Part shown: positions 46,701 to 64,000 of the stretch, one piece after another
Numbering within the stretch: the stretch's first letter is position 1
How the letters are laid out: each line of letters begins with the position of its first letter
From: Pseudomonas sp. MUP55
GTDB taxonomy: Bacteria > Pseudomonadota > Gammaproteobacteria > Pseudomonadales > Pseudomonadaceae
DNA length: 64,000 bases
Assembly (NCBI RefSeq): GCF_034043515.1
Contig: NZ_CP138214.1
Location: 2,852,001-2,916,000, forward strand
Reading direction: 5' to 3'
The notes under the pieces: model-generated
Databases searched by the model: none
What the model was told of the DNA's origin: nothing
The model's input: only the letters and a program-made list of their open reading frames with translations
Position numbers and translations under genes: made by a program

Positions 46701-48763
46701 ATGCCGAATTCAAAAGAGTTTTCACCTACCTTCTTGAGAATAGCGGTTCAGGATTGATTACAGGTTTGCTGGCTTCAATTGCAGTCGCGTTTCCAAAAAA
46801 GGTGGGGAGCGAAGCACTTCCAATTATTAGGTGTGAGCATTTCTACGGCCTTGAAATCAACAGGATTGTCAAAGAACGTACTCCAATGGGGTATCCACGA
46901 GTTCCCTTCGGTCGAGAACTCCTCGCGGAAGCCTATATTGATGAGCGCAATAGGTCTAATGCGCGTCCTTGGAGAACCCGTTCACTAGAGGATCTGCTAT
47001 TACAAATTCAGCTTGATCCCGAGCTTCAGCCCCACGCACTTGCTATTCTCGATAAATTCAAAAACCTCTCACCCGAAGAATCTGAGAGTATCCAGTACAT
47101 GTTGCATCGTACAGATACAAGAGATATGACGGTAGTGCCAACACAGGAGAAGAATATATTCGAGCTTAGAGTGGCGAAGCCGCTTCCAACCGAGCTGGAG
47201 CAAAAAAGAGCTGCACACCACGCTCAACAAAGTTTCGATTACCGCATTTTCCGCTTGCACAGATGGTCTGATTCAGTCTTCAACAAGAATGCACTTAGTT
47301 CAGAACCGTACGAAACTTATCATCAAGCATTACAAGAGGCCATCGGACTGCTAGATGACGTTTCTAAGGGGGTGGTTCAGACAAAGCTTGGATTGATGGC
47401 TCTGGGTGCAGTCGTAACGACGGCGGCAATAGGGCTACGCGATCACTTGGACACGCTGTCTGATGAGGATCTTCAGTGGATCATCTACCGAATAGTGGAG
47501 GTTGTAAGGTTTGGGGCTAATGATTTCAATGGCTTTGCATCTACCGGCACGGGCGACCTGGGTGGTGAATCGGCTTGTGCTGTCATGATCCCAAAACTGT
47601 TTGAGGTCGTTCAGGAGGAGGACTTTGAAGAAGTTAAACATTTAATTGCAACTTGTCTGACCCATCCGAATGATTACGTCCGGCTAGCTGCCGCGAAGGG
47701 CGTGCGTCATTATCTGTGGGACATCGACAGGGACTTTGCATTGGTCTGCAGCACTTGGCTGATGCGGCTTTCGGAGATCGAGCAAGCTTGTTACGCACTG
47801 ATTAGGTCTGGAAGAGGAGGGGTGAAGGGGGAAGAAGCTGTAGCACTTATGGAGGGCTACAGGGCAGAACTGGTGTCTGCTGAATTTTCAGCTGACGCAA
47901 CGTTTTTTTTTAATAGTCAGCATGCTGGGGCGCTGCACTTGATATTGCTCATGCAACCGTTGGCAAGTGACAATGATCATGTTAAAGCTATCTTGAGCGG
48001 GATTGTAAACTATATCTGTGACGGTAGCGAAGATGACAGGGATTCTTGGGCTGGCCTGGAGGCCCAGGAAGCAATGCAGAAGTGCTTAGCGGAGCATGTA
48101 GTGGCTTCGGTACCTGCTAATTTCGAGCCTGTTCGTGATTGGGTGCTGCAAGGCTGCCGTAATGATCCACATTTCATGTATATGGTTAAGCTTTGCGCTG
48201 AAATCGAACTAGAGAAATCCATGTCTCTGGATGCTATCTGGGGCCTCTGGAGGCTGTTCGAACCAGAGATGCAGTACGCTGCAACTGCTGACCTTGGCCT
48301 ATTACCGCACTCCAAGCGGGAGAGCGTCTTAAAGTTCCTGAGGGGGATGCTATTTCTTGATTATCCTATCAGGGGCAAGCCTAATGAGGCAGAGCGTGCA
48401 CGCATGACGCATGGGGCTCGTTACCTGATCGATTTCACGAAACAGTTTGTCATGAATTCGAGTGTTTTTGAGTCACTCACTACACATATGTATTACTATC
48501 CTGATCATTTCCTACGTCAGGGCATTCATACAGTGGCTGAAGCTCTACGCCGGGATCCAGATCTGGCCTCCAAAGAAGTTGGTGCATATTATTATCTGGA
48601 GATGGCTATTGCGCGGTTTTTAAACGTGGATGAGCGCGGGGAGTTAAGTAGGGCGCAGCACAAAGATTGCCTCACCATTTTGGATTGCACCGTGAAAAAA
48701 GGTTCTGCCCGGGCCTATTTCCTACGGGAAAATTTGGTCAGCTCGCGACGCATCTCCAAATAA
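43706..48763 (+). CDS. Giant nuclease-STAND NTPase (Avs-like, putative phage sensor)
   Basis: 1685 residues from ATG 43706 with ribosome site taaggga. N-terminal domain, about 10-130: FENKVQAIF, NTDDFVMEA (Asp63/64) and LFGQVKHE (Gln82, Lys84), the D-QxK layout of Cap4/DUF4297-type endonucleases. The P-loop domain has Walker A VSGDRGAGKSALVK (318-327), Walker-B-like KVLVIESIERIL and sensor IATGRSYG. A motif SPSHDVFEDWALDKF marks a winged-helix part near 575-590. The remaining 1000 residues look like helical repeats without known catalytic motifs. This architecture matches Avs-type STAND systems, where phage protein binding to the repeats activates the nuclease. Exact Avs class is not determined. 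Confidence 0.7.
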   Translation: MVSSTKEQSNPFSTGGGGVVFENKVQAIFTLALLADAPIPGLPHAARATSIKLQAKYEGVNTDDFVMEAVDRAGSTCRLFGQVKHEIKIGSSEDSTFSEVMTSAWKDFSGGNFNPKTDAIALVVGVLPKNDVNNTLPVLEWARYSSDAAEFIRKSQTKGFTSDAKKNRLQMFRDQLNSANDGVALSDHELWSFLKVFYVLSYDVDAKASVVSTFVNALISCYTDQPSHAVMARIVEHVQSFNHNGGTITRENLGELGEIFKPAVSAKLAQDILKLSEQGEYIYEGIRDSIQNVHVNRDVEMTNLEQLFLEDGIILVSGDRGAGKSALVKHFLSQRLKDCVPFYLRAEDLDKPSLGQVFSSIGLESTIGQIAGHLALIKNKVLVIESIERILELKDPTAFQQLLRFIQKSGGWTFIATGRSYGMQQLNFTHLQPADIKFQTVSIGGFTIEQLAHLCVELPALGPLIKNPSLSAIMRVPFFVDLAVRALANNQTFTDTDTESEFRSRIWESVIARSDRRGDGMPDRRERTFVEISKKRAKSMVFGVPARDFDAGAVEQLEADDLILRVQNSYVSPSHDVFEDWALDKFIDQEYEDHADSAFEFLNAIGSEPAINRGFRLWLLRRLREDATVVELVEQILSSESIPDYWKDETLAAVLHSDTPRELLNSIQLLIVKNDFALFEKLLFILRTTCQRPWEGLKGLLPSEALEQFPNTLILTPFGRGWSACFEFAYNHRQSLHAEILRNVFEALSVWGDSYHLDGWADEALREAALLALHIIDVNKDSYSRDEMRSKLILIVLRLAHVVREELAALFERDVFIVKSANRPRYVRSLTQLVLNRESAGVLCQHMPDTVIRLARHEWFKVEDDHYYAYRRNDSFGLENVDLSPGSSGLKGPFHALLTYHSDKAISFILELCNWCTGALVEAESPHPKAAPEWSDLYDESKLAQVTLRLNNGSDIVQWVSPQLWKAYRGLSVVPGMLHCALMALENWFIRQAQSEGNDAEFKRVFTYLLENSGSGLITGLLASIAVAFPKKVGSEALPIIRCEHFYGLEINRIVKERTPMGYPRVPFGRELLAEAYIDERNRSNARPWRTRSLEDLLLQIQLDPELQPHALAILDKFKNLSPEESESIQYMLHRTDTRDMTVVPTQEKNIFELRVAKPLPTELEQKRAAHHAQQSFDYRIFRLHRWSDSVFNKNALSSEPYETYHQALQEAIGLLDDVSKGVVQTKLGLMALGAVVTTAAIGLRDHLDTLSDEDLQWIIYRIVEVVRFGANDFNGFASTGTGDLGGESACAVMIPKLFEVVQEEDFEEVKHLIATCLTHPNDYVRLAAAKGVRHYLWDIDRDFALVCSTWLMRLSEIEQACYALIRSGRGGVKGEEAVALMEGYRAELVSAEFSADATFFFNSQHAGALHLILLMQPLASDNDHVKAILSGIVNYICDGSEDDRDSWAGLEAQEAMQKCLAEHVVASVPANFEPVRDWVLQGCRNDPHFMYMVKLCAEIELEKSMSLDAIWGLWRLFEPEMQYAATADLGLLPHSKRESVLKFLRGMLFLDYPIRGKPNEAERARMTHGARYLIDFTKQFVMNSSVFESLTTHMYYYPDHFLRQGIHTVAEALRRDPDLASKEVGAYYYLEMAIARFLNVDERGELSRAQHKDCLTILDCTVKKGSARAYFLRENLVSSRRISK

Positions 48764-49222
48764 ACTAGGTGTGACGACCCTAGGCTGTTCGGCCCAGGGC
48801 TTGTCATCCTGAATTGAAGGATCGTTGTTTGAATGGCTCAACCCTGGCTCCTTACACACCCGTCGCCGGAGGTTAACCGGAGCAGCCGGTAAGACTATCT
48901 CCCTTGAGCAATACTTCGATCCACGCTCTTCAGCTTCGAGTTTCACGACCAATCACCATGATCCGGCGCTTTTCTTGCTGGTATGCCTACGATGTTCCCA
49001 GAAGGAACAACCCTGAAAGCTTGGCGTACTCAGGATCCTGTTCGCGGCTACGGTCGAACCAATGGAGGGAGAGGTGAGAAAGAATGTCACTGTAGATGAG
49101 AGTTAATGTCTGTTGTGCGGTATTCATCGCAAGCCATTGCTTAACAATACTTCCCACAAAATGGCCAAAAGTAGCCGTGCATTTGAGTTTTGCCTCTACG
49201 GGGGGTGTTAGTAGCCGAAAAT
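48764..49222. other. Gap without recognisable gene
   Basis: 459 bp. Only short overlapping open frames without ribosome sites. Some fragments look coding-like in composition but match nothing I know. Possibly the scar of a lost gene. Confidence 0.4.
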
Positions 49223-49923
49223 CTAGACCTCGATCTCCGTTCGCAAATTCTTGATTAAGTCTTCGTCTGTTACGTCTGAATAGGCGAAATCACCAGCGAG
49301 AAAGAATTTGAGAAGCGGAATATATTCTATGTCTGTGCGTTTTATTAACTGTCGCAGTGACGCTTCTCCTTCAATTTCACCTTTAATCTCAATCCCCTCA
49401 GCATCACCAATCATTTCGAAAACCAAATAGTTGGGCCCCAGTTGATCCATGGTGTTATTTGCGGCGTTGGATCATATATCGCGCATTGGAGCACCGTCTG
49501 CCGAAACACTCGGTGCGTTAGTTCGACAAAGAGGAGAGTTGTATCGACTGCTAACTCAGCCTGTTCTCGTGTCGGATTGACAAAGTCATGCTCAATCGTA
49601 TTTCGCAGTTTGTTGATTTTTTCTAAAATACGCGGAGCCACCAGACCGATCGTTCGGATTGCAGCTAACCTAGACGGGAAGGTGTTGCCACCGCGAAGCC
49701 CAAGCGTCTCGATGACCGCTTCAATTTGGCAGTCAATTGCTCTCTTTGCATTTGCAACTGCCTCACGGTAACCGCCGGAGGTCAACCTCGATAATGATGC
49801 CTCTGCTTCGCTCAAATAGTTGTGAGGGGTTACTTCGTAGGGAAATACGAAGTCGCGAAACGCACTGCGCTCATACTCCGTCAGCAAAGGGTGGAATTCA
49901 TTCAGGAAGCGTTGCAAATCCAT
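49223..49923 (-). pseudogene. HEPN-domain protein gene, probably frameshifted
   Basis: From ATG 49923 a 170-codon frame runs to a stop at 49411. It is helical and holds KINKLRNTIEHDFVNP (Arg107-X4-His112), the active-site motif of HEPN ribonucleases. A second frame continues from about 49450 to 49223 and reads sensibly (GPNYLVFEMIGDAEGIEIKG onward). Joining frames at the CCCC run 49436-49439 (one base short on the coding strand) gives NWGPNYLVFE with no break, for a protein of about 233 residues. So either a real frameshift, a sequencing error, or two overlapping genes. Confidence 0.6.
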
Positions 49924-50201
49924 GGTGTGCTACCTAAAGCTAGTTAATTTGCGCCTATGCGATGCACAGACGTATTGCGAATTTCAGTGCTCCCGCCTAC
50001 GCGAAATGGGCTCTTGCCTAGCCCTTTGGCTCTTTGAGTTGGCACTTCAAAAAGCTGCGCTGTGCCCTGGTGAGCAAACCGTATGAAACCGGGGGATCCT
50101 TTCATAGTAATGCATGATGGCTCATGGCTATATCGCGCGGGCGAGATTTTCGCTAACGTCAGTCCGATACGAAGGTGGGCACTATCAGAGGGAGTACGAC
50201 C

Positions 50202-51185
50202 GTGGAGCTGAGCAAGCTGGAACTCAAGGAATTGGTGCATCGGGTCGTCGTCGCCCAAGGAAATTCTTTCATCAAAGAGCTGCTACGCAACAGCGGCACC
50301 AAGATCGGAGTCACGAAGGAAGATTTCGCGAGCAACCTTGATTCTGCCATTGATGAAGAAGTTATCACCCAGGGGACGCTGGAAGCCTGGCTTGCAGAGG
50401 TAGAAGGCTGGGGCGATCAGCACCTCTACTTATTCCAACCTCCAGAGATCGATGCTGCCGCGCTTGCCAATGGCATAGCCGCCAGTCCGCATGCTGGCGT
50501 TCTGGGCTCTAGCGCTAGCCTTGATTTTCCCGATGGGCTTGAGCTCAAGCATATCGGTCTCGGAGATGTCGGATTATCGATGGAGTGGCACCAGAGCAAA
50601 GAAGGATGGAATCGCTGGAAGCCGAAGGATTTTATCGTGGAGGAGGAGCTCGAGCGGTTTCGGTTTGATGCCTATCGTCAACGCTTCGATCGTAGTGTTG
50701 TTCGATACGAATGGCGTTTCGGTGATGGTTATTGCGCGATCTTGATTCACCGAAACCCAGAGATTGACCACTATGCAGTTCTCGCCGATATCCATGCTGC
50801 ATTAGTGGCCATCGGTTGCCCCAATGTTCCTTTCGCAAAGATAACGCTCAGCCAAGCGGTGAAGGTGGCCGCCAGGGATGATAGGGGCGTGCATTCGACC
50901 CGGTTCGAGCTCGACAGCGGCTATGTGGAGATGGCGTCAACTCTGGCTGAAGGAGGAATTGAATCCGTGGAAGCAGTTCGGGGCGTACTCCGTGCAGTGG
51001 ATGCCAGCCAATTCGATAGAGCACAGGGCATGCTTCATTTTGTGGCTGAGGAACACGGGACGAGTCGTCGCATTGCAGTCCAAGTTTATGGTAATGAAGG
51101 GAGACTCAGGATTTGGGCACAATGCAAGCGGGAGGATGTATTCAAAATTGTTGAGCTTCTCTGGGGGTACAACAACGAAGCATGA
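50202..51185 (+). CDS. Unknown protein, first gene of a two-gene module
   Basis: 327 residues from GTG 50202, preceded by agagggag at good spacing; an upstream GTG (50175) has a poorer site. The N-terminal 75 residues look helical (ELKELVHRVVVAQGNSFIKE, then TKEDFASNLDSAIDEE). The rest is mixed with several strands, e.g. SVVRYEWRFGDGYCAILIHR. No catalytic motif, signal or membrane segment is recognised. The stop overlaps the ATG of the hydrolase gene by 4 bp, so the products are made together and probably act together. Base composition is that of the accessory region. Confidence 0.65.
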   Translation: MELSKLELKELVHRVVVAQGNSFIKELLRNSGTKIGVTKEDFASNLDSAIDEEVITQGTLEAWLAEVEGWGDQHLYLFQPPEIDAAALANGIAASPHAGVLGSSASLDFPDGLELKHIGLGDVGLSMEWHQSKEGWNRWKPKDFIVEEELERFRFDAYRQRFDRSVVRYEWRFGDGYCAILIHRNPEIDHYAVLADIHAALVAIGCPNVPFAKITLSQAVKVAARDDRGVHSTRFELDSGYVEMASTLAEGGIESVEAVRGVLRAVDASQFDRAQGMLHFVAEEHGTSRRIAVQVYGNEGRLRIWAQCKREDVFKIVELLWGYNNEA

Positions 51186-52282
51186 ACACTTCAGAATCGC
51201 AGGCGAGTCGCTGGAGAGCGGAAATTAGTCGGCGCCTAGAGCTAGGTGACGGCCTGGAATTCACACTCGCGCATTTCGCGCAGGCGGTCGGTGTGCAGGC
51301 GAGCGACCAAGCACTACATGCCTTTATCGAAGAACTGGTGGCATCAGCTGCAGCACGAAGAATCGAGACCTATCGATGCCCGCTTTGCCCTTACGTGTTT
51401 GCGCCCGGCACAGCTAAAACGATCACGATGTGCCCGAATTGCCACGCTGATTATCAGCAGGAAGGCGAGGAGGTCATCGTTGAGTATTTCTATCGCCTCG
51501 TGGGTGAAACCAGCCGCGATATAAGGTGGGTCATTGTCATCCATGGCATGAACAGTCGCGCTCCCTGGCAGGAAGAGTTCAGTTGGCAGATCGCCAATCG
51601 ACTTCGCTACTCAGCCCCAGTGCTCATATATAAATATGGCTGGGCGACAGTAGACGTCCTGATAAAGCCACTCCATCGAAGGCTAGCAAGGCAGCTAGGT
51701 GAGAGAATCAGGATTGCGATCAATCAGGCGATGGATAGCCAACGCCCCTCAAGCCCCGACATCATTGCTCATAGCTTCGGCACCCGTCTCTTCTCGCTCA
51801 TCCTGGAGGATCCTAAATTCATCGATCTTAAGTTCGGGCGCGTCATTACTGCCGGCAGCATCGTACGTCCCGATTTTGATTGGGAGCGCCCTATCGCAGA
51901 AGGTCGGGTGGAAGCCGTCTTAAATCACGTCGGAGCGAAGGACACGGCCGTACCGTTTTCGCAATACACCATTCCGGGGGCGGGCCCCGGCGGAACAGTA
52001 GGCTATGCCTCGAGGAGTGCTCTCAATGTTCGTAACAAGAATTTCGGCCACTCGGATTTCTTTGTGCCTGAAAATTTACGCGGACTGATTTCAAATGATG
52101 GTTTGTGGCATAGCTTCCTAACTCATCCGCTGGCTCATTTCAGGCCTGAAGGGGTCTTTGAACTCAATGTTAAATGGAAGCCTGCATGGTGGCCGGTGCG
52201 AGCATTTATGCGAACACTGCTCTATATCGTCTTCTGCATTTTTGGGCCATTGTCGTGGCTGCGTCGCAAGATCGACCCATAA
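51182..52282 (+). CDS. Zinc-ribbon alpha/beta hydrolase with C-terminal membrane helix
   Basis: 366 residues, start overlapping the previous stop. A four-Cys zinc ribbon lies at 66-87 (YRCPLCPY and TMCPNCHAD). Then an alpha/beta hydrolase: WVIVIHGMNSRAPW (oxyanion 121-125), nucleophile DIIAHSFGTRL (Ser198), candidate Asp254 in GAKDTAV and His290 in FGHSDFF. The end (about 338-360, FMRTLLYIVFCIFGPLSWL) is a likely membrane helix followed by a basic tail. A lipase or esterase acting at the membrane is plausible. In a defence setting such an enzyme could damage the membrane upon activation; this is inference. Confidence 0.7.
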   Translation: MNTSESQASRWRAEISRRLELGDGLEFTLAHFAQAVGVQASDQALHAFIEELVASAAARRIETYRCPLCPYVFAPGTAKTITMCPNCHADYQQEGEEVIVEYFYRLVGETSRDIRWVIVIHGMNSRAPWQEEFSWQIANRLRYSAPVLIYKYGWATVDVLIKPLHRRLARQLGERIRIAINQAMDSQRPSSPDIIAHSFGTRLFSLILEDPKFIDLKFGRVITAGSIVRPDFDWERPIAEGRVEAVLNHVGAKDTAVPFSQYTIPGAGPGGTVGYASRSALNVRNKNFGHSDFFVPENLRGLISNDGLWHSFLTHPLAHFRPEGVFELNVKWKPAWWPVRAFMRTLLYIVFCIFGPLSWLRRKIDP

Positions 52283-52615
52283 ATCAAATGTAGTTTCGTC
52301 ACGCGTTTCAGGCTTTTTGAGTCGCACCGGGGTTCGTAGACACCTCCCTGCCATAGATGGACTGCCCCAGCGCAGTAGACATCTCCAGCTAATACAGGCT
52401 CGCCACCGACGGGCATGCGCGAAGGTACCGATACCGAGTTGGCCCGGTGTTACTTCGCACTGCTGCTCATCGGTCTTTGGATTAGCAAATGTCGTGTACA
52501 TAAGCTCAAAGCGTCCGGCGGTTAGGTTACATTGCTCAGGCCGGCATTATGCCACTGATGCTTTAGCCATCGTGGAACGCTGAAAATAGGGACAGTCGTA
52601 GGGGATCGGATTCGC
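52283..52615. other. Gap with decayed sequence
   Basis: 333 bp. Leftward frames reading MYTTFANPKTDEQQCEV and, shifted, a GGEPVLAGDVYCAGAVHLWQ run suggest remains of a broken gene, but no full frame or ribosome site is present. Confidence 0.4.
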
Positions 52616-54928
52616 ATGCTCGAGAAAATCGTCTGTATCGATAACATCGGTGTCATCAAAAAGGGGATCACAAAGCCTATAGATCTGGAAAAAGTCAGCC
52701 TTATTTACGCTGATAACGCCCGTGGAAAGTCGACACTGTCATCGATCCTGCTGGCGTGTTCTACCTTCGACGCTCAGGATCTGATCGACCGCAAAACAAT
52801 TGGCGCACTGACCTCACAGAAAGTCCATTTCCGATTCCGTCCCGGGGCCGGATCACCTCCCTTCAGCACTGAATTCGATGGTGCCTCCTGGAAGGGGCAG
52901 CAACCGAACCTTCACGTGTTCAACCAGGCTTTCGTAGATCGCAATGTATACGCAACTGCTGGTGTTCTTCCCGAGCAACGGGAGGCGCTACTCAATCTGG
53001 CCCTTGGCGACGCGGCTGTAGCCCAACGGACGAAATTCGACACCGAGTCCGCGACAGTGCGGGACTGTACCGCGAAGGTCGCCGCCGCCGAGGGGGCATT
53101 GCAGGGGTATAGAGGTAATTTGTCGGTCAGCCAATTTACCAAGCTCAAGCCAATTAAAGATGTCGACGCCCAGATTGTTGAGACCGACAGGCAACTGAAC
53201 GAAGCTCGGGCATCCCAACAGATAATGAGCCGTCCAGCTTTCAAGATGGTGGATATACCAGCGTTTAATTTCGAAGGTCTGCCCAGCCTTCTGGAAGGCT
53301 CCTTCGAGAGTATTTCAGTCAACGCAGAACAAACAGCAAAAGCCCATTTTGCCAAACACAAAGGGCCAGCAACCGAGCGATGGGTTGCCGAGGGGCTCCA
53401 GCACCTTCCAGAAGATGAATGTCCGTTTTGCGGCCAGGAAACGAATGAGCTGAGTTTGCTCAAGGCTTACAAATTGTACTTCGACGGCTCCTACTCCGAA
53501 TACCAGCGCCGCATTACCGCGCTTCGTCAGACTGTGCTGCAGAGGCTGGGTGATAAGAAGCTTGGAGGGTGGAGTGCTGCCAACGAATATAATCAGGGCC
53601 TTCGAAGCGTGTGGGCCGAAAGCCTGGGAGTCGCCGATATTCCTGTTCTCGACAATGTGGCTGCTTGGCAAGTGCTCGGCCAGGTTGAGGCAGACTTGCT
53701 TGCAATAGTCAGTCAAAAGGAAGGCGATCCGCTAACTGCACTCGATTCCGCGCCGTTCCTGAAAGTGGTAGAGCGGTTGAATGAACTTGCCCAGATTGCA
53801 ACTGACTTCAACCAGCAAATCGTCAAGCTCAATGATGTGATTGCTGAATACAAGGCGAAGCTGGCTAAACCCGATATTTCGGGACTTGAGGCATCTCGAT
53901 CCTCGCTCATGCTCGGCAAGACAAGGTTTGATGCTCCGGTTGTAGCTCTCGTTGCAGAGCTGGCCACTGCAAAGACGAAGCTGAAATCCGCAGAGGCCGC
54001 AAGAGATACTGCTCGTACTGAGCTAGACAGGTTGATGGGGCAAACGCTGAAGGATTTTCAAATATCCATTAACAATTGGCTCCGTAAATTCGCGGCCCCT
54101 TTCGAGATCCAGGCCTTGGCCCCCACCTATAGAGGTGGGGGCTTGCGCTCTGAATATGCGCTGAAGGTGAGAGGCGCCACTGTCATCGTTGGCCCCGGCG
54201 TAGGAGGGGACTTGTCATTCCATTCGGCTTTGAGCGAAGGGGACAAAAGGACGTTGGCGTTTGCTTTCTTCCTTGCCCGACTGTTCGCCGACGCCAATCG
54301 ATCCGATGCTACGGTAGTACTTGACGACGTTTTCACCAGCTTGGATAAGCATCGCCGTCATAACACGGTTGAGGCAGTGCTACAGATGGTCTGCCAATGC
54401 TCACAGGTCATCGCTTTGGGCCACGATGCCCACTTTCTACGTGAGGTCAAACGGCGTGTAGCGCGTAAAAAGCTTGGAAAGATAGAAGAGCTTTCCCTTC
54501 ATCGGGATGCGGATGATTACAGTCGACTGGATGATTTCGATCTAGATGACTATTGCTCCTCGGAATACTACAAGCATTACCAACTCGTTGAGCGATTCAT
54601 CGATGGAGATACTACCGTCAGCTTGCTCGAAGTGGCCAAAGCCTTGCGTTTACTGGTTGAGGGGCACCTGCATCGATGTTTTCCAAAAAAATTCACTGAA
54701 GGGCAGACGGTGGGCGACATGCTGGGCCAGGTCAAAGGGGCGGTCGCCCCAAATCCCCTGGCACTATTGCATCCGCTTCATGCTGAGCTGGTCAGCTTCA
54801 ACGAGTTCGCTGCGGCATTTCATCATGACACCTCCGGGGGATACACCAGGGTAGAAATCAACGCTGCGGAGCTGCTGCCATTTGCCAAAGGCGCGCTGGG
54901 ATTCATCCAGATGAGAAAATTCAGCTAA
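52616..54928 (+). CDS. AAA_13-family ATPase (PrrC/RloC-like)
   Basis: 770 residues from ATG 52616. Walker A ADNARGKSTL (32-41), the family motif HVFNQAFVDRNVYA (100-113), long coiled coils with a central CPFCGQE (Cys269, Cys272, a zinc-hook-like pair), ABC signature LSEGDKRTLAFAF (539-551), Walker B VVLDDVFTSLD (567-577) and H-loop LGHDAHFL. The C-terminal 150 residues contain LRLLVEGHLHRCFPKKF and may form the effector part. AAA_13 proteins include anticodon nucleases, but the PrrC Arg-Glu-His triad is not evident to me. It is single-gene by spacing. Confidence 0.75.
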   Translation: MLEKIVCIDNIGVIKKGITKPIDLEKVSLIYADNARGKSTLSSILLACSTFDAQDLIDRKTIGALTSQKVHFRFRPGAGSPPFSTEFDGASWKGQQPNLHVFNQAFVDRNVYATAGVLPEQREALLNLALGDAAVAQRTKFDTESATVRDCTAKVAAAEGALQGYRGNLSVSQFTKLKPIKDVDAQIVETDRQLNEARASQQIMSRPAFKMVDIPAFNFEGLPSLLEGSFESISVNAEQTAKAHFAKHKGPATERWVAEGLQHLPEDECPFCGQETNELSLLKAYKLYFDGSYSEYQRRITALRQTVLQRLGDKKLGGWSAANEYNQGLRSVWAESLGVADIPVLDNVAAWQVLGQVEADLLAIVSQKEGDPLTALDSAPFLKVVERLNELAQIATDFNQQIVKLNDVIAEYKAKLAKPDISGLEASRSSLMLGKTRFDAPVVALVAELATAKTKLKSAEAARDTARTELDRLMGQTLKDFQISINNWLRKFAAPFEIQALAPTYRGGGLRSEYALKVRGATVIVGPGVGGDLSFHSALSEGDKRTLAFAFFLARLFADANRSDATVVLDDVFTSLDKHRRHNTVEAVLQMVCQCSQVIALGHDAHFLREVKRRVARKKLGKIEELSLHRDADDYSRLDDFDLDDYCSSEYYKHYQLVERFIDGDTTVSLLEVAKALRLLVEGHLHRCFPKKFTEGQTVGDMLGQVKGAVAPNPLALLHPLHAELVSFNEFAAAFHHDTSGGYTRVEINAAELLPFAKGALGFIQMRKFS

Positions 54929-55419
54929 TTGGAGTTTCTAAAGTTCTCTTCTGCGGCGAGCCCGAGAATTTGTTTCTTACTTGGGCCACCGTAATGGTGT
55001 TTCCTAATACCAGGACAACCATTGAGTCCGGCTTTGCTAAAATCTACGATCCTAGCAATCACCCTCGATGCCGTTGGTGCATAAACCCATCCGAACGGGC
55101 AATTGCTTGCCACCATGGGGCGCGGGGGGAGGGTTGCACCAGGGTGGGCAACAGAGGGCCAAAACAAGCTCGGCGCCAAGCGAGGGGACAGTGGAAGTTG
55201 TGGAGTCGGTTGCCTACATATTCACTCTGACCACCTAGTGCCCCCCGGAACACGAAGCAATTTGCCAAGGTGATTGGATGCATATCAAGGGCCCCGTGCT
55301 ACTGCTGTCGCGCGGCAGGCCGCCCTTTGGCGTACTATCCCCAGCACTTAGGGTTTGCCGGACACTGTAAGACAAGCGTCAAATTCAGTAGGAGCCATGG
55401 ATAGGATGAGCTTTTCGAC
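54929..55419. other. Gap without recognisable gene
   Basis: 491 bp. Leftward frame ending in the AAA_13 stop region has a sensible-looking stretch (IVDFSKAGLNGCPGIRKHHY) but a poor start and Pro/Arg-rich opening. I do not call a gene. A promoter for the next operon should be near 55350-55410. Confidence 0.4.
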
Positions 55420-58400
55420 ATGAGCGTGGGCATTAAACGTAGCGCTATACCCGCCAGCGGGTACATGTACCAGACACTGGTGGGGATCAAGCTACTGTGT
55501 GACTGGCTTGATACACCTTCACTTTATGACTGGGTCAAATTCGAGGCAGATGACGAGAAAGATGCTCAAGGTCTAGATGACATCGTGGCTCAACGAATCG
55601 ACGGCAGGGTAGACCTAATCCAGGTTAAATTCACTGTTGATGTCTTTGACCCCAGCAATGCGTTGTCATGGAGCTGGCTGACCACCCGCAAAGGGCAGCG
55701 CGGTAGGTCATTGCTGGAGAAGTGGTCGAGTGCGTTCTTTCGCGTTGGCTTGGCGCGGTTGGGAGCGGTCCGCCTGATCACGAATAGGCGACCGGACGCG
55801 GCATTTACGCTTCATCTGGCCGACGTAAAAGTACGTTGGGAATCGTTACCCGAGGGGCTTCGTCAAGAACTCGAACCTCATTTGGGGGGCGCCGAGAGCG
55901 CCGCACTGTTCTTTGAGAACTTCGAGTTCTCCCATAGCTTCGCCGGCTATGAATCGCTGGGCGGTACGGTGTCATCGGCATTAGAAGGAAATCACACGGA
56001 CCATCTCGGCTGGCTGACCCTCTTACGCCGCGCCACTGAGTGGAGTATTCACAAAAATGCTCCCGCCCCTGACGGGCGCATCACCTTAGAAGTGTTGCGC
56101 AGTACTATCTCCGAGCGGCAACCTCGACCGTTGGACCAGGAGTTCCGGGTACCGGCAGGCTATCTGCCGCCTGACCCCCAGTTTGCAAAGGAATTTATCG
56201 ACGAGATTCAGTCTGGCGACTGGAATGAACGGGTGCTATGGGGCTCTCCAGGGCAGGGCAAAAGCACCTTTTTAAGCTACATCTGCGAACAGCTTCGTGC
56301 CTTGGGCATGCAAGTCGTCCGCCATCACTACTTTCTCGATCTGCAAGATTCCTCTGATCGTTTTAGCTTGAAGAGTGTTGCCCGCTCGATGATGAGCCAG
56401 CTGTTGAGCGACTTCCCTGCAGACGTCGCTCATTTGGAGGATAAGCCCGAGCAGTTACGCAACTGGATAGAGGCGTGCGGTTGGGCTTGCTTAGAGCAAG
56501 GACGGCGGTTGGTCGTGGTGGTTGATGGGCTCGATCACGTTTGGCGCGAGAATGACGAAGAAATCCGGCCGCTGAATGAACTCTTCAAGCAGTTACTCCC
56601 CGCGCCACAGGGAATCACACTCATCCTAGGCACTCAGCGCGTGAGTGAGGACCAGTTGCCTCGGCGGATGCATAGTGGTCTTGATCCGCACGCGTGGGTA
56701 GAGCTGCCTCGCATGCAAATGACCTCGATCATTGCATGGCTCCGGGGGCAGCATGAGGCCGGCGTCTTTCAATTACCGCCCGGTGATCCGACAGAGCGAC
56801 AGCTGGCACTTTTGTCCGAAGCGTTCATGGCACTAAGCGAAGGTCATCCGCTAGTGCTCACTTATATGTTCATGAAAGTGGCCCATGACCGACGCGTCGT
56901 CTCATTGGCAACATTACAACAAGTGGACTTTGCTCCGCAGGGCGATGCACGAGTTTACTACCAGACGCTGTGGCAACGGTTGTCTTGGTCTGTGCGCGAC
57001 GCCCTACACCTACTAGCAGAGGATCGCTTCATCTGGCCTACCGGAGCACTTGAGCATTGTCTTGAGTTAAGGGACGTCAACCTGGAGGCGGAAATCGGCC
57101 ATCTCTTGGCTACGGTCGACGCCGGTTTGCAGGCGTTTCATGGCAGTTTATACGTGTTCATTGCGCAACAGCCTGATCACCAGCGCCGTGTGGAGATGCT
57201 GCGGCCAAAAGTGGAGGCATGGCTTGACAAGCTTGCACCCGAGTATTTGCGTTGGGCTTGGTTGTGGTTGTACGAGTCTCGTCGGGGCGATCAACACAAC
57301 CTGTTGAGCGGTACGACCAGGGGGTGGGTGCTGGATGCTCTCAGGCGTGCCTGTGAAGTCGGGCAGATCGTTCGTATCCTGAAAGCCGCGGAGCTGGTGG
57401 CTTTCGATGCGGGTTATTTCGAAATCGCGATCCGCAAGAGAGCTCTCAAACACCGGGTTGAAAACGGACTTGCTTATCAGTTGGAGGACGCTGACGCCTT
57501 GCGCGAATGCGCGCTGCAACTGACTCCAGATCCCTACCCAGCACTGCTCTTAGCCTCACAGGTCAATCAGTCCAAACTGCTTGCCCTGCAGCAGTTGGCC
57601 ACCCTGTACCTGTCATTAGATCAGGTCGAGCGGGCTAGTGAAGTGCAGGAGCGGATGCGCAGCAAAATCAATGATCGGCTTCGTGCCAAAACTCTCAAAG
57701 CGCGAGACTACGAAGAGGCTATCAGTCGCTACCTGCAAGTAGCGGCAGGCACCGGGCGATATGAGCCGGACAGCGTCCTGAAGCTACTGCGACGGCATCG
57801 AAATTCGGTAGAGCTTTTTGAGCGGTTCCTGACCAACGCAAGCAGGGCTGAAGACCTGGAAGGCATCATGGTTTTCGCCAATCTTCCGATGCCTGCGCGC
57901 TTACGGCGGGTGTTCGAAGTCCAAGCGGTGCGGGTCGCCGGTTGGGCCGGAGCCAAATTGCAAGATTGGCAACAATTTCTGGGTTTTAGGAAGCATCCGC
58001 TTTCGGCATGTTGGTCCCTGTTGTACCAGCCCAAGCAAGCTCGGCGCATCCCTCAAGTAAGCGCTCATGACGCTTTAGCCATTGGCTCCACGAGCAACGA
58101 TGAGGATGACTTCGCCCGCTATTTGCATTTCTTGTTCTTCGCAGCCGTGGCCCAGGGCCTAGCGCAAAAAGGAGCGCCGACCCCGTCCTGGCTAGGCGTC
58201 CAGACAGAAAAGAAATGGCTTTCTGCAATCCTGCTAAGTCTGGGCAACGCGGCCAATGCCACAGCAGCGATATTAGCCCGTGGTGAAATCCCACCCGCTT
58301 CGGTGGTATACCGACTCGTTGTCAGCGAGCGGCCCGCTCACAGCGATCATGAAGCTTGGAGCGACCTACGAGCTGTCCGTAGAGCGCTGGTTCTGATCAC

Positions 58401-59814
58401 CGCAGACATTTTTTTGCTTACGCGAACACGGTCTGGAGCACCCCATCTACCGGCAACAGAATGGGGCGCTTGCAAGGCTTCTGGATTCTTCGCGCTAGAG
58501 CATTGGCGAAGTGATTTCCTCATGTGCAACTACCGCTTGCTCGATGCTGTAACTGCGCATGCCTACATCGCTGAGCAGGTCCAAGCGGCCAGACATACCG
58601 TTGGCCCCTTCAATGAAAAAGCTACGGCGCTCGCGGACTTGTGTAGTTGGGCTACCGCGTATGGACTGAGGGAGCTAGCTCATGAGTTGCTTGAGCGGAC
58701 GTACGAGTATGCGATCGGCTATGGTTGGCGCAAGGACCCCGGCTTGGCGGTGGTACTGGAAGTGGTGGGTGACATTGCGAAGAGAGACCCTGCAGCAGCC
58801 GTTCAAGCAGTCAGCCGGCTAGCGCCCATTTACGACCAGATCGATGTCATGACGGAAGATTCTGGATCAAGGCCTTGTGATCTTGCCGCCTTGCTCTGGC
58901 AGTTGCTGCCTGAGGTTTACGTACGCTGCTACCGACACTTTCTGTCGCAGGGCGAATGGTATTACGCCGACCATACCTTTGCGGTTTTTGCCGAACGCGT
59001 CGACCTGAGCGCGCCGGAGAGCGCTGTTGCGCTCAGTGTTGCCTTGGGGGAGCAAACGGTTCAGGCGCTCCAGACTCGCTCGCGAACGACTGAAGGGGCG
59101 GTGATACCATCACAGGTCCGCTTATGGGATCGTGATCTTACTACTAGTTTGAAAGCTGGGGAGACATTGAACGAGCAGGCGCAGACCCATGCATCCCTCG
59201 GTGGTGCCCCAGATCTCGTTCAGCCAGATGCGCCCAATTTTGAACATTTCCCTCCCGCTCGACTCGGGGATTTTCTAGCAGAGGTTGGCAAGAAGGTAGA
59301 TTACCAGCTGCGTTCAACGCTGATCCAAAATTGGCTCATGCACTGGGATGGGAAGGGTAATGTTGCCGAGATTCTTCGCGCACTTGAGCAACTGCTACAG
59401 GACGGGGGCTCAACCTCACGCGGGACCGAGCTACTTGATCCGGCTTTTCATCTGGCTTTACGTCTGCAAGGCCCGAAGCCGGCGTTTGTCTGGCTAGTCC
59501 GAGCACACCAGTACCGCTACGGTTGGTCGGAGCGGCACTACGGCTACTCAGAGTCGATCAGGCGCCTGGAGTTGGTTGGTAAGCACTACCCCAAGCGCTG
59601 GAAGGAATTTTTGGCGCGATCATCGCTGCCTGCTCCAAATTCTTATGTTCAGGAACGGGCCATTCCTGATGCGGGCATTGTGCGCCTGTTATTGGAGGTA
59701 AACGATTTAGAGCGAGCGAAGAGTGTTTTCGAAACCATGATTGACATTGTTGTTGAAGAGTTCAGTGCCCAGCCTCTAGAGCAGCCAGAATGGTGGCAGG
59801 AGCCAGGCGCATGA
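55420..59814 (+). CDS. QxK nuclease-STAND NTPase, 1464 residues
   Basis: Start ATG 55420 with aggatgag upstream. N-terminal nuclease-like domain, about 10-165: SGYMYQTLVGIKLL, Glu42, GLDDIVAQ (Asp53/54) and DLIQVKF (Gln68, Lys70), as in Cap4/DUF4297 proteins. P-loop domain: Walker A LWGSPGQGKSTFLSY (273-287), Walker B RLVVVVDGLDHVW (363-375), LILGTQRVS as sensor. After about 520 the protein is a long helical array, probably TPR-like, in which no enzyme motif is seen. The stop overlaps the next gene by 4 bp. A sensor-effector protein of STAND type is likely; the target is unknown. Confidence 0.72.
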   Translation: MSVGIKRSAIPASGYMYQTLVGIKLLCDWLDTPSLYDWVKFEADDEKDAQGLDDIVAQRIDGRVDLIQVKFTVDVFDPSNALSWSWLTTRKGQRGRSLLEKWSSAFFRVGLARLGAVRLITNRRPDAAFTLHLADVKVRWESLPEGLRQELEPHLGGAESAALFFENFEFSHSFAGYESLGGTVSSALEGNHTDHLGWLTLLRRATEWSIHKNAPAPDGRITLEVLRSTISERQPRPLDQEFRVPAGYLPPDPQFAKEFIDEIQSGDWNERVLWGSPGQGKSTFLSYICEQLRALGMQVVRHHYFLDLQDSSDRFSLKSVARSMMSQLLSDFPADVAHLEDKPEQLRNWIEACGWACLEQGRRLVVVVDGLDHVWRENDEEIRPLNELFKQLLPAPQGITLILGTQRVSEDQLPRRMHSGLDPHAWVELPRMQMTSIIAWLRGQHEAGVFQLPPGDPTERQLALLSEAFMALSEGHPLVLTYMFMKVAHDRRVVSLATLQQVDFAPQGDARVYYQTLWQRLSWSVRDALHLLAEDRFIWPTGALEHCLELRDVNLEAEIGHLLATVDAGLQAFHGSLYVFIAQQPDHQRRVEMLRPKVEAWLDKLAPEYLRWAWLWLYESRRGDQHNLLSGTTRGWVLDALRRACEVGQIVRILKAAELVAFDAGYFEIAIRKRALKHRVENGLAYQLEDADALRECALQLTPDPYPALLLASQVNQSKLLALQQLATLYLSLDQVERASEVQERMRSKINDRLRAKTLKARDYEEAISRYLQVAAGTGRYEPDSVLKLLRRHRNSVELFERFLTNASRAEDLEGIMVFANLPMPARLRRVFEVQAVRVAGWAGAKLQDWQQFLGFRKHPLSACWSLLYQPKQARRIPQVSAHDALAIGSTSNDEDDFARYLHFLFFAAVAQGLAQKGAPTPSWLGVQTEKKWLSAILLSLGNAANATAAILARGEIPPASVVYRLVVSERPAHSDHEAWSDLRAVRRALVLITADIFLLTRTRSGAPHLPATEWGACKASGFFALEHWRSDFLMCNYRLLDAVTAHAYIAEQVQAARHTVGPFNEKATALADLCSWATAYGLRELAHELLERTYEYAIGYGWRKDPGLAVVLEVVGDIAKRDPAAAVQAVSRLAPIYDQIDVMTEDSGSRPCDLAALLWQLLPEVYVRCYRHFLSQGEWYYADHTFAVFAERVDLSAPESAVALSVALGEQTVQALQTRSRTTEGAVIPSQVRLWDRDLTTSLKAGETLNEQAQTHASLGGAPDLVQPDAPNFEHFPPARLGDFLAEVGKKVDYQLRSTLIQNWLMHWDGKGNVAEILRALEQLLQDGGSTSRGTELLDPAFHLALRLQGPKPAFVWLVRAHQYRYGWSERHYGYSESIRRLELVGKHYPKRWKEFLARSSLPAPNSYVQERAIPDAGIVRLLLEVNDLERAKSVFETMIDIVVEEFSAQPLEQPEWWQEPGA

Positions 59815-61259
59815 ATGCTAAACAGATTGCCGACATCGCGGTTGCGCGCCTAGGACTTCCCGTTCCAACGGGTAAACTGGTCATCATTCATTCCCTCGCG
59901 CAAGCGCTGCTGAATCCGCAAACTCAAGCAGTGTTCGGAGACGCTATAGTGAGGTGGTTGGCATCCTGTGAACTGGAGTCGGAATGTTTAGAGGCACTCG
60001 CCATATTTGTACTCGCTCCGCCGCAACCTGAATTCATGGTCCAAATTCAACACGCAATCTTGAAACCGTCCATAGCGTCGGATGCGCTGATATCGATAGC
60101 AACAGGCAACCCAACCGCCCCCCGGTCTTGGGCAGAATGTCATTCAGGGGCGATGCCTGTACGTTGCAATTTAACCAAGGCTGAAGAAGCACTGGCTAGC
60201 GGTACTTTCATACCGCCTTTCTTTGTCCACCAGTTGGAGGAGCTTCAAGCATCATCTGGACATCCTTTCCTCAAGCAATGGGCATTTGAGTTCAGCTCCC
60301 TCGGCGATCGTGTTAGCAGCAACAACGATGGGCATTTCAGCTACTTCGTCGGCGGTGAGCGCGACAACGTCGGGCAATTTGTTGCTCGGCAGGGACATTT
60401 GGCCAGGTCTGCTTATCTACGAGTTCTCGCGTTCGCTGTGGAGCACTGGTCTATGCCCCCCGAGCTTGCTGCAGATTATGCGCAGGTAGCATTCCCCGCT
60501 GAGCCCCTGTTTCTGAAACTGCTACCTGGAAAGGCCCCACCATGGGTGAGTAGAGTGCACCGTACTATCTATTCCGCCGCTGAACTGCCCGAGTCGTTAG
60601 TTCGCGAGTGCGTGGAGCGGGTAGAAAAATCCACCGACAGCCGCGTGATGCATTTATCAATGACTGTCATCGATACGGCCCTGCGTCATGTAGAGCTGGA
60701 AGCCTTTGCCGTGTTTGGGACGGAGCCTGTCAGAGCACAGCGTGTGCTTCGGGTTTATACAGGGATGCTCGGTGACATCACGCTGGCCCGTGATGGGCTC
60801 CGGGCGTTCGTTTCCCCGGAGCTATCGGCGGGGGCAGCAAAGAATCTAGGCTTCGTTCCGGCGTTACTACCGCTGATTGGTCCATTGGTTGGGTACTTGC
60901 AGACGGACTTTGTCGGCCGTATCCCCTATGTTCCGTTCTCGTCCAAATCACTACCCCAGATTGAACTAGCGCCAGGGGAGGGTGGGGCGCAATTGAGGTC
61001 ACGAGGCGATGTGGTGGGCAAATTTGCCTTTTGGTATTGGCATTGGCAGGCGTCCCACAAAAGAAATTGGCCCAGCCCCACCGGCTGTTGTACCTACCTC
61101 ACCCGGGAAGCCGCTGAACGCCTCGACTCAGACTATGCTGGTCAACCTCATTACGCATGGAAACTAACCACATGGGGGCGGACATCGGATTACGAGGAAT
61201 GGGAGGAATCTGTACAGGTGGGGACAATCCCATGTCACATGGATACGACTCAGCGTTGA
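59811..61259 (+). CDS. Unknown partner protein of the nuclease-STAND gene
   Basis: 482 residues from ATG 59811, inside the ATGA overlap with the NTPase gene and after the ribosome site caggagcc. The N-terminal 120 residues look helical (AKQIADIAVARLGLPVPTGK). The middle has DGHFSYFVGGERDNVGQFVA and a helical run, and the C-terminus is aromatic-rich (KFAFWYWHWQASHKRNWPSP). No P-loop, nuclease motif, signal peptide or membrane helix is visible. Tight coupling says it is needed in fixed ratio with the NTPase, as inhibitor, adaptor or second effector. I do not recognise the family. Confidence 0.65.
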   Translation: MNAKQIADIAVARLGLPVPTGKLVIIHSLAQALLNPQTQAVFGDAIVRWLASCELESECLEALAIFVLAPPQPEFMVQIQHAILKPSIASDALISIATGNPTAPRSWAECHSGAMPVRCNLTKAEEALASGTFIPPFFVHQLEELQASSGHPFLKQWAFEFSSLGDRVSSNNDGHFSYFVGGERDNVGQFVARQGHLARSAYLRVLAFAVEHWSMPPELAADYAQVAFPAEPLFLKLLPGKAPPWVSRVHRTIYSAAELPESLVRECVERVEKSTDSRVMHLSMTVIDTALRHVELEAFAVFGTEPVRAQRVLRVYTGMLGDITLARDGLRAFVSPELSAGAAKNLGFVPALLPLIGPLVGYLQTDFVGRIPYVPFSSKSLPQIELAPGEGGAQLRSRGDVVGKFAFWYWHWQASHKRNWPSPTGCCTYLTREAAERLDSDYAGQPHYAWKLTTWGRTSDYEEWEESVQVGTIPCHMDTTQR

Positions 61260-61666
61260 GCGATTTTTCCAGCCTGGCGAAGCAACACTGCTTGAATGCA
61301 ACAATGCAACGAAGGCCTGAGCATAGCGTTTCCCAGCATCGCGGGTGGACTGTCGCTGAACGAGACGCCTCAAAATGAGACCGCCCGCGAGTGTTCATCG
61401 ATTTTTGTTTATGACATCCGTTTTGATAGCCACCGATGGAAGTCTCGCTGCAGGTGACCGGCGTGGATCAGTACGACGGCCGAATGCGCTTTCACTCCAT
61501 CGTACTCAACCACTAGATCACCCTAAGTCAAGTGACAGTAGTTATAGTGCTTTCACTTGAATTCGCGTCGGCTACATGTCGAATATTAGTTTTGTGATGA
61601 TCTAACGTACGCCCGTTGATCAATGGAAGCGTTTTGTTCCATCATATTTAGATACTGGCCAAGAGT
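61260..61666. other. Gap with operator-like inverted repeat
   Basis: 407 bp. Small frames such as that starting at 61436 (MEVSLQVTGVDQYDG) may be remnants, without ribosome sites. The right half is AT-rich and should hold the promoter of the last gene. Confidence 0.45.
61528..61560. promoter_or_regulatory. 8-bp inverted repeat with 17-bp spacer (tcaagtga...tcacttga)
   Basis: Perfect arms at 61528-61535 and 61553-61560, about 107 bp before the nuclease gene. Centre-to-centre spacing of 25 bp suits a dimeric regulator spanning two turns, or it marks a weak hairpin. No regulator gene is adjacent. Confidence 0.45.
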
Positions 61667-63832
61667 TTGGCGGACAAAGGCATTCGGGAAAGTATTTTGG
61701 ATTTTTTAAGTCAGGGTCACTCGTACAAATTGCCGGGTAGTTCTCAAGACCATGAGGAACTGCCGCAAGAGTGGCCAGATCACCTTCACCCCGAGGCAAA
61801 GGTCAAACCAGTCGAACGTGTGTTTCATCGAGGCGAGTTTCTGCTCGACTTCGCCAGGATGCCAGCGGCTTCTTTCGAACAGTTCTGTTGGTCGCTGCTG
61901 ACCAAGGAGCAATCGCTGCATGGCTGTCAAAGGCTCGGTAAAAATGGAGCCGAGCAGGGCGGTATTGATCTTTTTGCTTATGATGAACGCTTTACCGACA
62001 AGCTTAATGTCTACGAGTGCAAGGCTTGGAAGAAATTCGATTCCACACGACTAACCGAGGCAATTGAGCGATTTCTTCAAGGTCGGTGGAAGAAAGATGC
62101 TCGCTCATTTACGCTTATTTTGGCACAAGAGGACCTGGGCGAGCCTCTGGCAAGACGTTGGGACATCGAAAAAAAACGCTTAAAGCGGTCTGGAATTGAA
62201 GGTGAACTTTGGACGGCTCACCATCTGACACAGAAAACCCAGTCTTATCCGGATCTGCTATCAAAGTTTTTTCCAGGGGCGCACGTCGAGACATTCGGCA
62301 ATTTGTGGATGGAGCGTAGCGGGTTTCTCGATGCAGTCTCAAAAGCAGTCTTCGATCCCAGGGAGCGAGTCGCACAGAAGGCCAGAGAGTTCATTGAAAA
62401 ATCGGGCAGGCTACTCGACAGCATTTCGGGTGGCAGTAACTTACCGGCTGGATCGACATTAGCCTCAGGCCATCAAATGACAGAGGCGCTGTCTTTTTCC
62501 ATAGACGCGTTCCGGAAAGTCAGTCATAGCGGCCGGCATTGGTTTTATAGTGGGCCATGGTTCTCAGTTAGTGTGTTCCTGCCCGACCAAATATCTTCCA
62601 AAGCATCCGCCGCTTTTGACTTCCACCAGGAAGATTTAAAGGGAGTTACGATTACGGTGAGCCACGATTGGCTCCTGAAGTGCTTTCTCTTTGCAGCAGG
62701 GGCGCTCCTGTCGAGCAAAGCTCGCACATTCATCGTTGGAAAGATGCCAGGCGAGCCCAACCAGTACCTGATTGACCTACCTAATTGCCGGCTGACTCTC
62801 CAAGAAGAGATCGTCCAAGAATTAGCCGATGTATCTGATCTGTTAACCATGGTTATGCGCGATGCGCTAAAGGCCATCGAAAGTAATTGGTCAGCTGTAG
62901 ATTTTCCATTTTTTGACTGGGGTGGGTCGCATAGAGTTGTCATTGCTTCCATACGTGAAGATGTTTGGAGAGAGATCGGACGGTTCACCGAGGAGCACGA
63001 TTATACGAATGGCTCTACACCTTGGCACATATTCGACGGCCATGCGGAGTTTCTTAAACCGTGCCATCAGGCTGCTACCGCAGAATTCGACGCAGGCTAT
63101 CACTGTTTAATTAGCGCTTTAAAAGAGGAGGGGGCAACGTCCGGTAACAGGGTTAAGCTGCTATGGGCGCCAGATGATCTCACGTACAGATCCCCTTCGT
63201 CGAAAGGATGGTGGCCTTGTGAATTCACTTTGCGCTGGTTGAATGAAACATTGCTTCCCGAGATAAAGCGGCGGGTATTTAGGCGTGAATTTGGCTCGTG
63301 GTGGAAGCGATTTCTGCATTCCAAACCAGCAGAGGAGTTCTCGAGGCACCTAGATAATATCTTCGTCGCACGGGATGCTCGGGAGCCATCACTTCTAGAT
63401 CATGGTCGTTGGAACACTGATATTCTGCGTGGGGTAGAAGCCTTACAGTATTTCTTTACATCTGCTTCGATCGGGGCTGCAGGGCTCGAGATTTGCCAGC
63501 AAGATGTGGAAAACCTATACAGGGCCATCGCCATCGTCGCGGTTCGAAAGCGTGGCTTTCCAGGATATGTGGCTTCGTCCTTAAGCTTAGACGGTCGACC
63601 GGACGATCATGCTCAGCTCATTGGAATGATTCATCATCATATCGATTCTGGGCGTGTTGTTTCTAACTGCCATGTCGTCGATTATGCATTTCGCGCGATG
63701 CTCGAATTGCTCGATGAATCCGACTCCTGTGGTAGTACTTATGATCAAGAAACAATCATGAACTGGCTGCTCCCGTTCGCACGCTTGCGGGACGATGGCC
63801 TACTGGTAAGCCGTCACACTAAACGGACATGA
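61667..63832 (+). CDS. Large protein with Mrr-like restriction nuclease N-terminus
   Basis: 721 residues from TTG 61667; the ribosome site is weak (ccaagag) and no ATG near it is better. Residues 55-160 form a PD-(D/E)xK domain: FEQFCWSLL (Glu71), GKNGAEQGGIDLFAYD (Asp101) and NVYECKAWKKF (Glu117, Lys119). The remaining 550 residues have no motif I know. It is mixed alpha/beta with strands such as WFSVSVFLP and RVVIASI. It appears to be a single-gene unit; such nuclease fusions commonly act in restriction of foreign DNA. Confidence 0.65.
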   Translation: MADKGIRESILDFLSQGHSYKLPGSSQDHEELPQEWPDHLHPEAKVKPVERVFHRGEFLLDFARMPAASFEQFCWSLLTKEQSLHGCQRLGKNGAEQGGIDLFAYDERFTDKLNVYECKAWKKFDSTRLTEAIERFLQGRWKKDARSFTLILAQEDLGEPLARRWDIEKKRLKRSGIEGELWTAHHLTQKTQSYPDLLSKFFPGAHVETFGNLWMERSGFLDAVSKAVFDPRERVAQKAREFIEKSGRLLDSISGGSNLPAGSTLASGHQMTEALSFSIDAFRKVSHSGRHWFYSGPWFSVSVFLPDQISSKASAAFDFHQEDLKGVTITVSHDWLLKCFLFAAGALLSSKARTFIVGKMPGEPNQYLIDLPNCRLTLQEEIVQELADVSDLLTMVMRDALKAIESNWSAVDFPFFDWGGSHRVVIASIREDVWREIGRFTEEHDYTNGSTPWHIFDGHAEFLKPCHQAATAEFDAGYHCLISALKEEGATSGNRVKLLWAPDDLTYRSPSSKGWWPCEFTLRWLNETLLPEIKRRVFRREFGSWWKRFLHSKPAEEFSRHLDNIFVARDAREPSLLDHGRWNTDILRGVEALQYFFTSASIGAAGLEICQQDVENLYRAIAIVAVRKRGFPGYVASSLSLDGRPDDHAQLIGMIHHHIDSGRVVSNCHVVDYAFRAMLELLDESDSCGSTYDQETIMNWLLPFARLRDDGLLVSRHTKRT

Positions 63833-64000
63833 ACCCGCGCCGACCAAGAGGGAGCGTGAGCCCGTCAGTTGGCACGCGGGCTATTGGCACCAACTGCGGT
63901 AGATATGGTCATCAACGTTGGCAATCCACTCTACGGGACGGACACCGACGATCGATACGGTAGCGCTGTTGTTCAAAGAGGGCAGAAATCGTACTTTCGC
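63833..64000. other. Right edge of window
   Basis: 168 bp after the nuclease stop. No gene or repeat is recognised; a GC-rich start may belong to a following feature. Confidence 0.4.

What the first reader, a model, noticed from the sequence alone, without database searches (positions are those of the whole stretch)
55420..61259. Two-gene nuclease-STAND module with an unknown 482-residue partner
The first protein has a QxK nuclease-like N-terminus, STAND-like Walker A/B and a roughly 900-residue helical C-terminus. The second overlaps it by ATGA and has no recognisable domain. Described Avs types are single genes, or (type I) carry other partner genes. A fixed partner of this kind is not known to me, so this may be a new immune system or subtype.
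Basis: partly seen in the sequence, partly recalled or inferred. Interest (0 to 1): 0.82.

Follow-up and report, generated by a model that had tools for sequence, protein, structure and literature searches.

The report
Split nuclease-STAND immune receptor pair
Two overlapping bacterial genes together look like one large phage-sensing immune protein (a DNA-cutting head, an ATP-driven switch and a sensing tail) whose tail end is made as a separate protein; in related bacteria the same two halves are one protein.

The parts
55420..59814 (+). Gene A: 1464-aa nuclease-NACHT-solenoid protein
55420..56139 (+). A residues 1-240: PD-(D/E)xK (Cap4-like) nuclease effector; D54, Q68, K70
   Evidence: PADLOC nuclease models at 6.7e-8 and 1.8e-7; Pfam Cap4 only E 0.2; D54, Q68, K70 in 91 of 91 rows
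56140..57099 (+). A residues 241-560: NACHT/STAND NTPase and following helices; K281, D369, D372
   Evidence: PF05729 E 8.2e-10; motifs in 91 of 91 rows; boundary approximate
57100..59811 (+). A residues 561-1464: helical solenoid, the larger part of the presumed sensor
   Evidence: AlphaFold model; whole-length match to Avs3
59811..59814 (+). ATGA overlap of A stop and B start (translational coupling inferred)
   Evidence: overlap or abutment in 11 of 11 other split loci examined
59811..61259 (+). Gene B: 482-aa detached C-terminal subunit
59811..60635 (+). B residues 1-275: helical half, continuing the solenoid
60639..61232 (+). B residues 277-474: beta-rich terminal domain

Best explanation
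Genes A and B encode one functional unit: a STAND (NLR-like) immune receptor in two polypeptides. A carries a Cap4-like nuclease effector, a NACHT switch and most of a sensing solenoid. B is the C-terminal end of that solenoid plus a beta-rich terminal domain, made separately by translational coupling and docked back onto A. By analogy with Avs3, a conserved phage protein (terminase, portal or another) would bind the composite surface formed by A's C-terminal part and B; the NACHT domain would then oligomerise with ATP and the clustered nucleases would cut DNA, aborting infection. Shown here: domain content, invariant catalytic motifs, fixed linkage, recurrent fused forms, parallel divergence of A and B, and predicted folds that tile Avs3 collinearly. 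Inferred: complex formation, the sensing role of B, the ligand, DNA cleavage and anti-phage function.
Confidence: 0.7

Rival explanations
1. B is a regulatory partner (inhibitor, lid or chaperone) that keeps the nuclease-STAND protein off, rather than part of the sensor; fusion merely fixes stoichiometry.
For: A separate gene with overlap and constant presence would also suit a restraining partner; nothing here shows that B binds a phage protein.
Against: B's model aligns with the C-terminal part of Avs3 as a continuation of A; in fused forms it lies in the terminal position described for STAND sensors (tripartite layout in PMC12931631).
Confidence: 0.2
2. The pair is simply a very divergent Avs3 whose long protein has been cut in two.
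For: Collinear fold alignment of A and B to 8dgc; weak but in-register profile matches at the C-terminus and the nuclease-NACHT region.
Against: The PADLOC Avs3a model does not match A, B or the fused relatives tested, while it scores 1990 bits on a real Avs3a. No avs3b-like gene follows B. All hhalign E-values are above 0.03.
Confidence: 0.2
3. The split is recent gene decay (a broken single gene) in this strain.
For: Fused relatives exist, and some copies elsewhere are truly broken (L006, L012, L021, L030).
Against: Both proteins are full length, the split form is conserved in 91 of 102 listed A homologues by length, overlap is kept in 11 of 11 other split loci examined, and catalytic residues are intact.
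Confidence: 0.03

Closest known systems
Avs3 (AVAST type 3, avs3a/avs3b; PDB 8dgc, bound to phage PhiV-1 terminase)
   Same: Nuclease - STAND NTPase - long solenoid - C-terminal domain in the same order; A and B models align to Avs3 273-1546 and 1548-2087. That Avs3 carries a Cap4/DUF4297-type nuclease is recalled.
   Different: No match to the Avs3a sequence model; the C-terminal quarter is a separate protein; no avs3b-like gene.
bNACHT25/32 (bNACHT clade 6)
   Same: NACHT protein with an N-terminal PD-(D/E)XK nuclease that is needed for defence (PMC12169576, passages).
   Different: No second protein of this kind is described in the passages seen; no direct sequence comparison was made.
Avs1b (AVAST type 1)
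   Same: A's NACHT region matches the Avs1b model (E 1.1e-10, residues 253-533); similar total length (1924 positions).
   Different: Only the NTPase region matches; the NCBIfam Avs1b score is 24.2 bits against a cut-off of 1500.
Single-chain (fused) relatives, e.g. the 1922-aa 'ATP-binding protein' of Serratia plasmid pPM120-2
   Same: Same family: A aligns to 1-1448 (29% identity), B to 1465-1916 (25%).
   Different: One polypeptide; no family model and no function found for it in PADLOC or Pfam beyond NACHT/nuclease matches.

Membership tests
STAND/NLR-like immune receptor | NACHT/STAND NTPase with Walker A and B | tested here: met
   PF05729 39.2 bits against cut-off 26.7; K281, D369, D372 in 91 of 91 rows
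STAND/NLR-like immune receptor | N-terminal effector | tested here: met
   PADLOC PD-(D/E)xK nuclease models at 6.7e-8 and 1.8e-7; D54-Q68-K70 invariant; Pfam Cap4 below cut-off on A itself
STAND/NLR-like immune receptor | C-terminal sensor that binds a trigger | not testable with these tools
   Solenoid and terminal domain present in models; binding needs experiment
Avs3 (AVAST type 3) | Matches the Avs3a sequence profile | tested here: not met
   No Avs3a hit for A, B or fused relatives; positive control 1990 bits on L042
Avs3 (AVAST type 3) | Avs3 fold over NTPase, solenoid and C-terminal domain | tested here: inconclusive
Avs3 (AVAST type 3) | avs3b downstream | tested here: not met
   Next + strand ORF of 80 aa or more is at 61667, 721 aa; B against one Avs3b E 0.5
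Avs3 (AVAST type 3) | Activation by phage terminase | not testable with these tools
   Needs co-expression assay
bNACHT clades 6 and 14 | NCH1 or SNaCT C-terminal domain | not tested
   No model for these domains was searched by name

The most novel reading that the evidence does not exclude
A new family of bacterial STAND immune receptors in which the end of the sensor is a separate subunit, so that the receptor is an obligate heteromer. Single-chain and two-chain forms have interchanged at least three or four times, giving natural experiments on how a sensor module can be supplied in trans to an NLR-like switch.
Probability: 0.6. Interest if true: 0.7.

Novelty: new variant of a known kind. 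Interest (0 to 1): 0.58.

Why it matters
STAND receptors are described with effector, NTPase and sensor in one chain (PMC12931631, passages). A conserved family that makes the distal sensor part separately, with many single-chain relatives, lets one test what that part does simply by adding or omitting a gene, and suggests that sensor ends could be exchangeable. The family (215 hits to the fused form and 102 to A, possibly overlapping; on plasmids of several proteobacteria and in 4 of 5426 complete E. coli genomes) had no fitting model in PADLOC 2.0 or NCBIfam and is annotated as 'ATP-binding protein', 'hypothetical protein' or 'multidrug DMT transporter permease', so finders built on such models would be expected to miss it.

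Tried and rejected
B as a known family: no match in Pfam, PADLOC, NCBIfam or PHROGs and nothing significant among PDB sequences. B as Avs3b: hhalign E 0.5 against one Avs3b. B as phage-borne: no match in 50,697 phage records and none among 25 IMG/VR candidate stretches (pattern-based); the fused form was not found in phages either. Frame decay: rejected from conservation. Alternative C-termini: apart from fragments, listed relatives of A fall in two length classes; the only A-like protein without a B match was a distant 1879-aa NACHT protein in G379. Literature: eight searches showed no title or abstract start that describes a split Avs/NACHT pair; the Avs3a/Avs3b/AVAST type 3 search gave 0 papers. 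The library lacks most subscription papers, so this is weak evidence of absence. DefensePredictor (PMC13092281, 12 of 15 passages shown) mentions NACHT systems, none recognisable as this one there; supplements were not read.

Did not work: the search for related loci with alignment A1 found no conserved stretch; A2 was used instead and gave only 3 named loci. An A-B complex could not be modelled. Families absent from the VIA-align lists are not excluded.

Full report
What is there. Gene A (55420-59814) encodes 1464 residues and gene B (59811-61259) 482 residues; the TGA of A overlaps the ATG of B. The window lies in a 5.95 Mb one-contig genome, and a DNA search finds the pair there once, beside one 38-base chance-like match. 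A second genome of the same genus (G029) carries at least 14.9 kb that is 99.66% identical to window 49072-64000; both ends of this match are ends of what was fetched.

Domains. A's N-terminus matches PADLOC models named SAVED_PDDEXK and Effector/Endonuclease (E 6.7e-8 and 1.8e-7); equating these with Cap4 is recalled. Pfam's Cap4_nuclease scores only E 0.2 on A; it is precomputed for 22 of the 120 listed fused-form relatives and for none of the 102 A relatives. NACHT is clear. In an alignment of 91 rows D54, Q68, K70, G278, G280, K281, S282, T283, D369 and D372 are identical in all 91. B matches nothing in Pfam, PADLOC, NCBIfam or PHROGs. Single-sequence and profile searches of PDB sequences named no relative of B or of A beyond P-loop and repeat matches.

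B is the C-terminal part of a larger protein. 16 plasmid records hold distant B relatives. In pMOL28, an Azonexus plasmid, a Pseudomonas aeruginosa plasmid, a Roseibium plasmid and a Klebsiella plasmid B follows an A-like gene as a separate gene. In Serratia, Klebsiella and Pseudoalteromonas plasmids and in two E. coli chromosomes A and B are in one reading frame; in that Klebsiella copy an IS element separates the first 110 or so residues. Against the 1922-aa Serratia protein, A aligns to 1-1448 and B to 1465-1916.

Linkage. I count 23 places with B-like sequence in the loci read: the window, L006-L017, L022-L024, L026-L030, L034 and L035. Some are close kin (L026 is nearly identical to the window; L022 and L023 are two E. 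coli). In 22, A's C-terminal part lies directly upstream on the same strand; 13 are split and 9 fused, counting the broken L006 as split and the broken L012 as fused. The exception is a short B remnant in G126 (L030), judged from the ORF list only. In 11 of 11 other split loci examined a B start codon lies -9 to 0 bases from the end of A's stop (L006 was not given to the script). Independently, 23 A/B protein pairs have the same longest-contig length to the base; shifting by 1-10 in one direction gives none (all 102 A and 90 B entries). In 398 genomes of the phylum the B profile hits 3 and the A-solenoid profile hits the same 3 plus one weak, distant hit without B. Other samples gave B in 3 of 369 (class), 3 of 390 (order) and 3 of 149 (genus; one is the remnant). 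The samples overlap, and each holds the window's own genome. The fused form is in 4 of 5426 complete E. coli genomes.

Recurrent fusion. Of 102 A homologues 91 are 1,389-1,556 aa, 9 are shorter and 2 are 1,923 and 1,941 aa. Of 120 listed fused-form homologues (215 found) 113 are 1,891-1,987 aa. On trees built from A residues 240-1440 only, so without B, split versus fused needs 3 changes among 91 rows, thinned from the longer lists, and 4 among 46 rows once the very divergent fused protein of L034 is added (a long branch whose place is unsure). The trees are unrooted and quick-method, and do not say which state is older. The two isolated fused proteins P0280 and P0297 are metagenomic predictions; both contain a full B-like C-terminus (30.6% and 35.7% identity).

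Co-divergence. Over 23 A/B pairs including the window, identities of A and B correlate at 0.977, with 0 of 2000 permutations as high; one pair was dropped because its A was shorter than 1380 aa. Mean identity falls from nuclease (70%) through NACHT (65%) and first solenoid half (61%) to B helical (57%), second solenoid half (53%) and B beta (52.5%). The C-terminal end of the composite is the least conserved, as expected of a sensor, but B is not more variable than A's own end by any margin.

Sequence relation to Avs3. The Avs3a model scores 1990 bits on a real Avs3a from G179 and gives no match to A, B or the fused relatives tested. hhalign of the B profile A1 against four Avs3a proteins picks their extreme C-terminus in register (B 357-475 on Avs3 1946-2065), but at E 0.24. 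B against one Avs3 C-terminus gives E 0.038 over 42 columns, the fused profile against four Avs3a gives E 0.053 over nuclease-NACHT, and profile A5 against one Avs3a gives only E 0.51. None is significant. I therefore say 'works like Avs3' (fold and order) and do not file it as Avs3.

Mechanism. STAND receptors have an N-terminal effector, central NTPase and C-terminal sensor, and Avs1-4 are nucleases triggered by conserved phage proteins such as large terminase and portal (PMC12931631, passages read). bNACHT25 and bNACHT32 have PD-(D/E)XK DNases that are needed for defence (PMC12169576, passages read). By analogy, binding of a phage protein to the A-B composite would release NACHT-driven assembly and DNA cutting. 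Whether B senses or only restrains is open.

Context. A defence island: an Avs4-like gene (43706-48763), a PDC-S06-like gene (52616-54928) and a gene with a weak Mrr-like N-terminus (61667-63832) flank the pair. In 6 of the 13 annotated loci fetched for this family an integrase or tyrosine recombinase gene is annotated within 8 kb (L007, L008, L010, L011, L014, L022).

Verdict. Novelty lies in the unnamed family and its two-chain form.

Noticed in passing
window 43706-48763 (+): 1685-aa Avs4-like protein (PADLOC Avs4, E 6.9e-151, residues 274-1678); the first 167 positions of the model are not matched, so its first 270 or so residues may be a different effector.
   Followed up: partly
window 50175-52282 (+): A second overlapping pair of unknowns, 336 and 366 aa, sharing an ATGA-like overlap at 51182-51185; no significant Pfam, PADLOC or NCBIfam match; the second reads like an alpha/beta hydrolase by eye.
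   Followed up: no
window 52616-54928 (+): 770-aa AAA_13 protein close to PADLOC candidate family PDC-S06 (E 1.3e-66).
   Followed up: no
window 61667-63832 (+): 721-aa protein with a weak Mrr_cat-like N-terminus (E 0.0063, below cut-off); possibly another restriction-type defence gene.
   Followed up: no
L026 4079-19001: G029, same genus, carries at least 14.9 kb of this island at 99.66% identity, which suggests recent transfer or shared descent.
   Followed up: partly
L040 1316-6955: 1879-aa distant NACHT protein beside an IS3-type transposase gene, without a nuclease or PADLOC match; only its NTPase region and a short solenoid stretch resemble A.
   Followed up: partly
L043 1498-8443; L044 1450-8470; L045 1483-8413: Avs3a genes overlap the next gene (annotated avs3b in two of three) by 35-107 bases.
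   Followed up: no
L006, L009, L024 (B genes): B relatives are annotated 'multidrug DMT transporter permease', which the predicted fold of B does not support.
   Followed up: yes
L012, L021, L030: Broken copies: a Piscirickettsia plasmid with A pieces on both strands, a Moraxella plasmid with IS3 genes between its A pieces, and a short B remnant near a tyrosine-recombinase-like gene in G126.
   Followed up: partly
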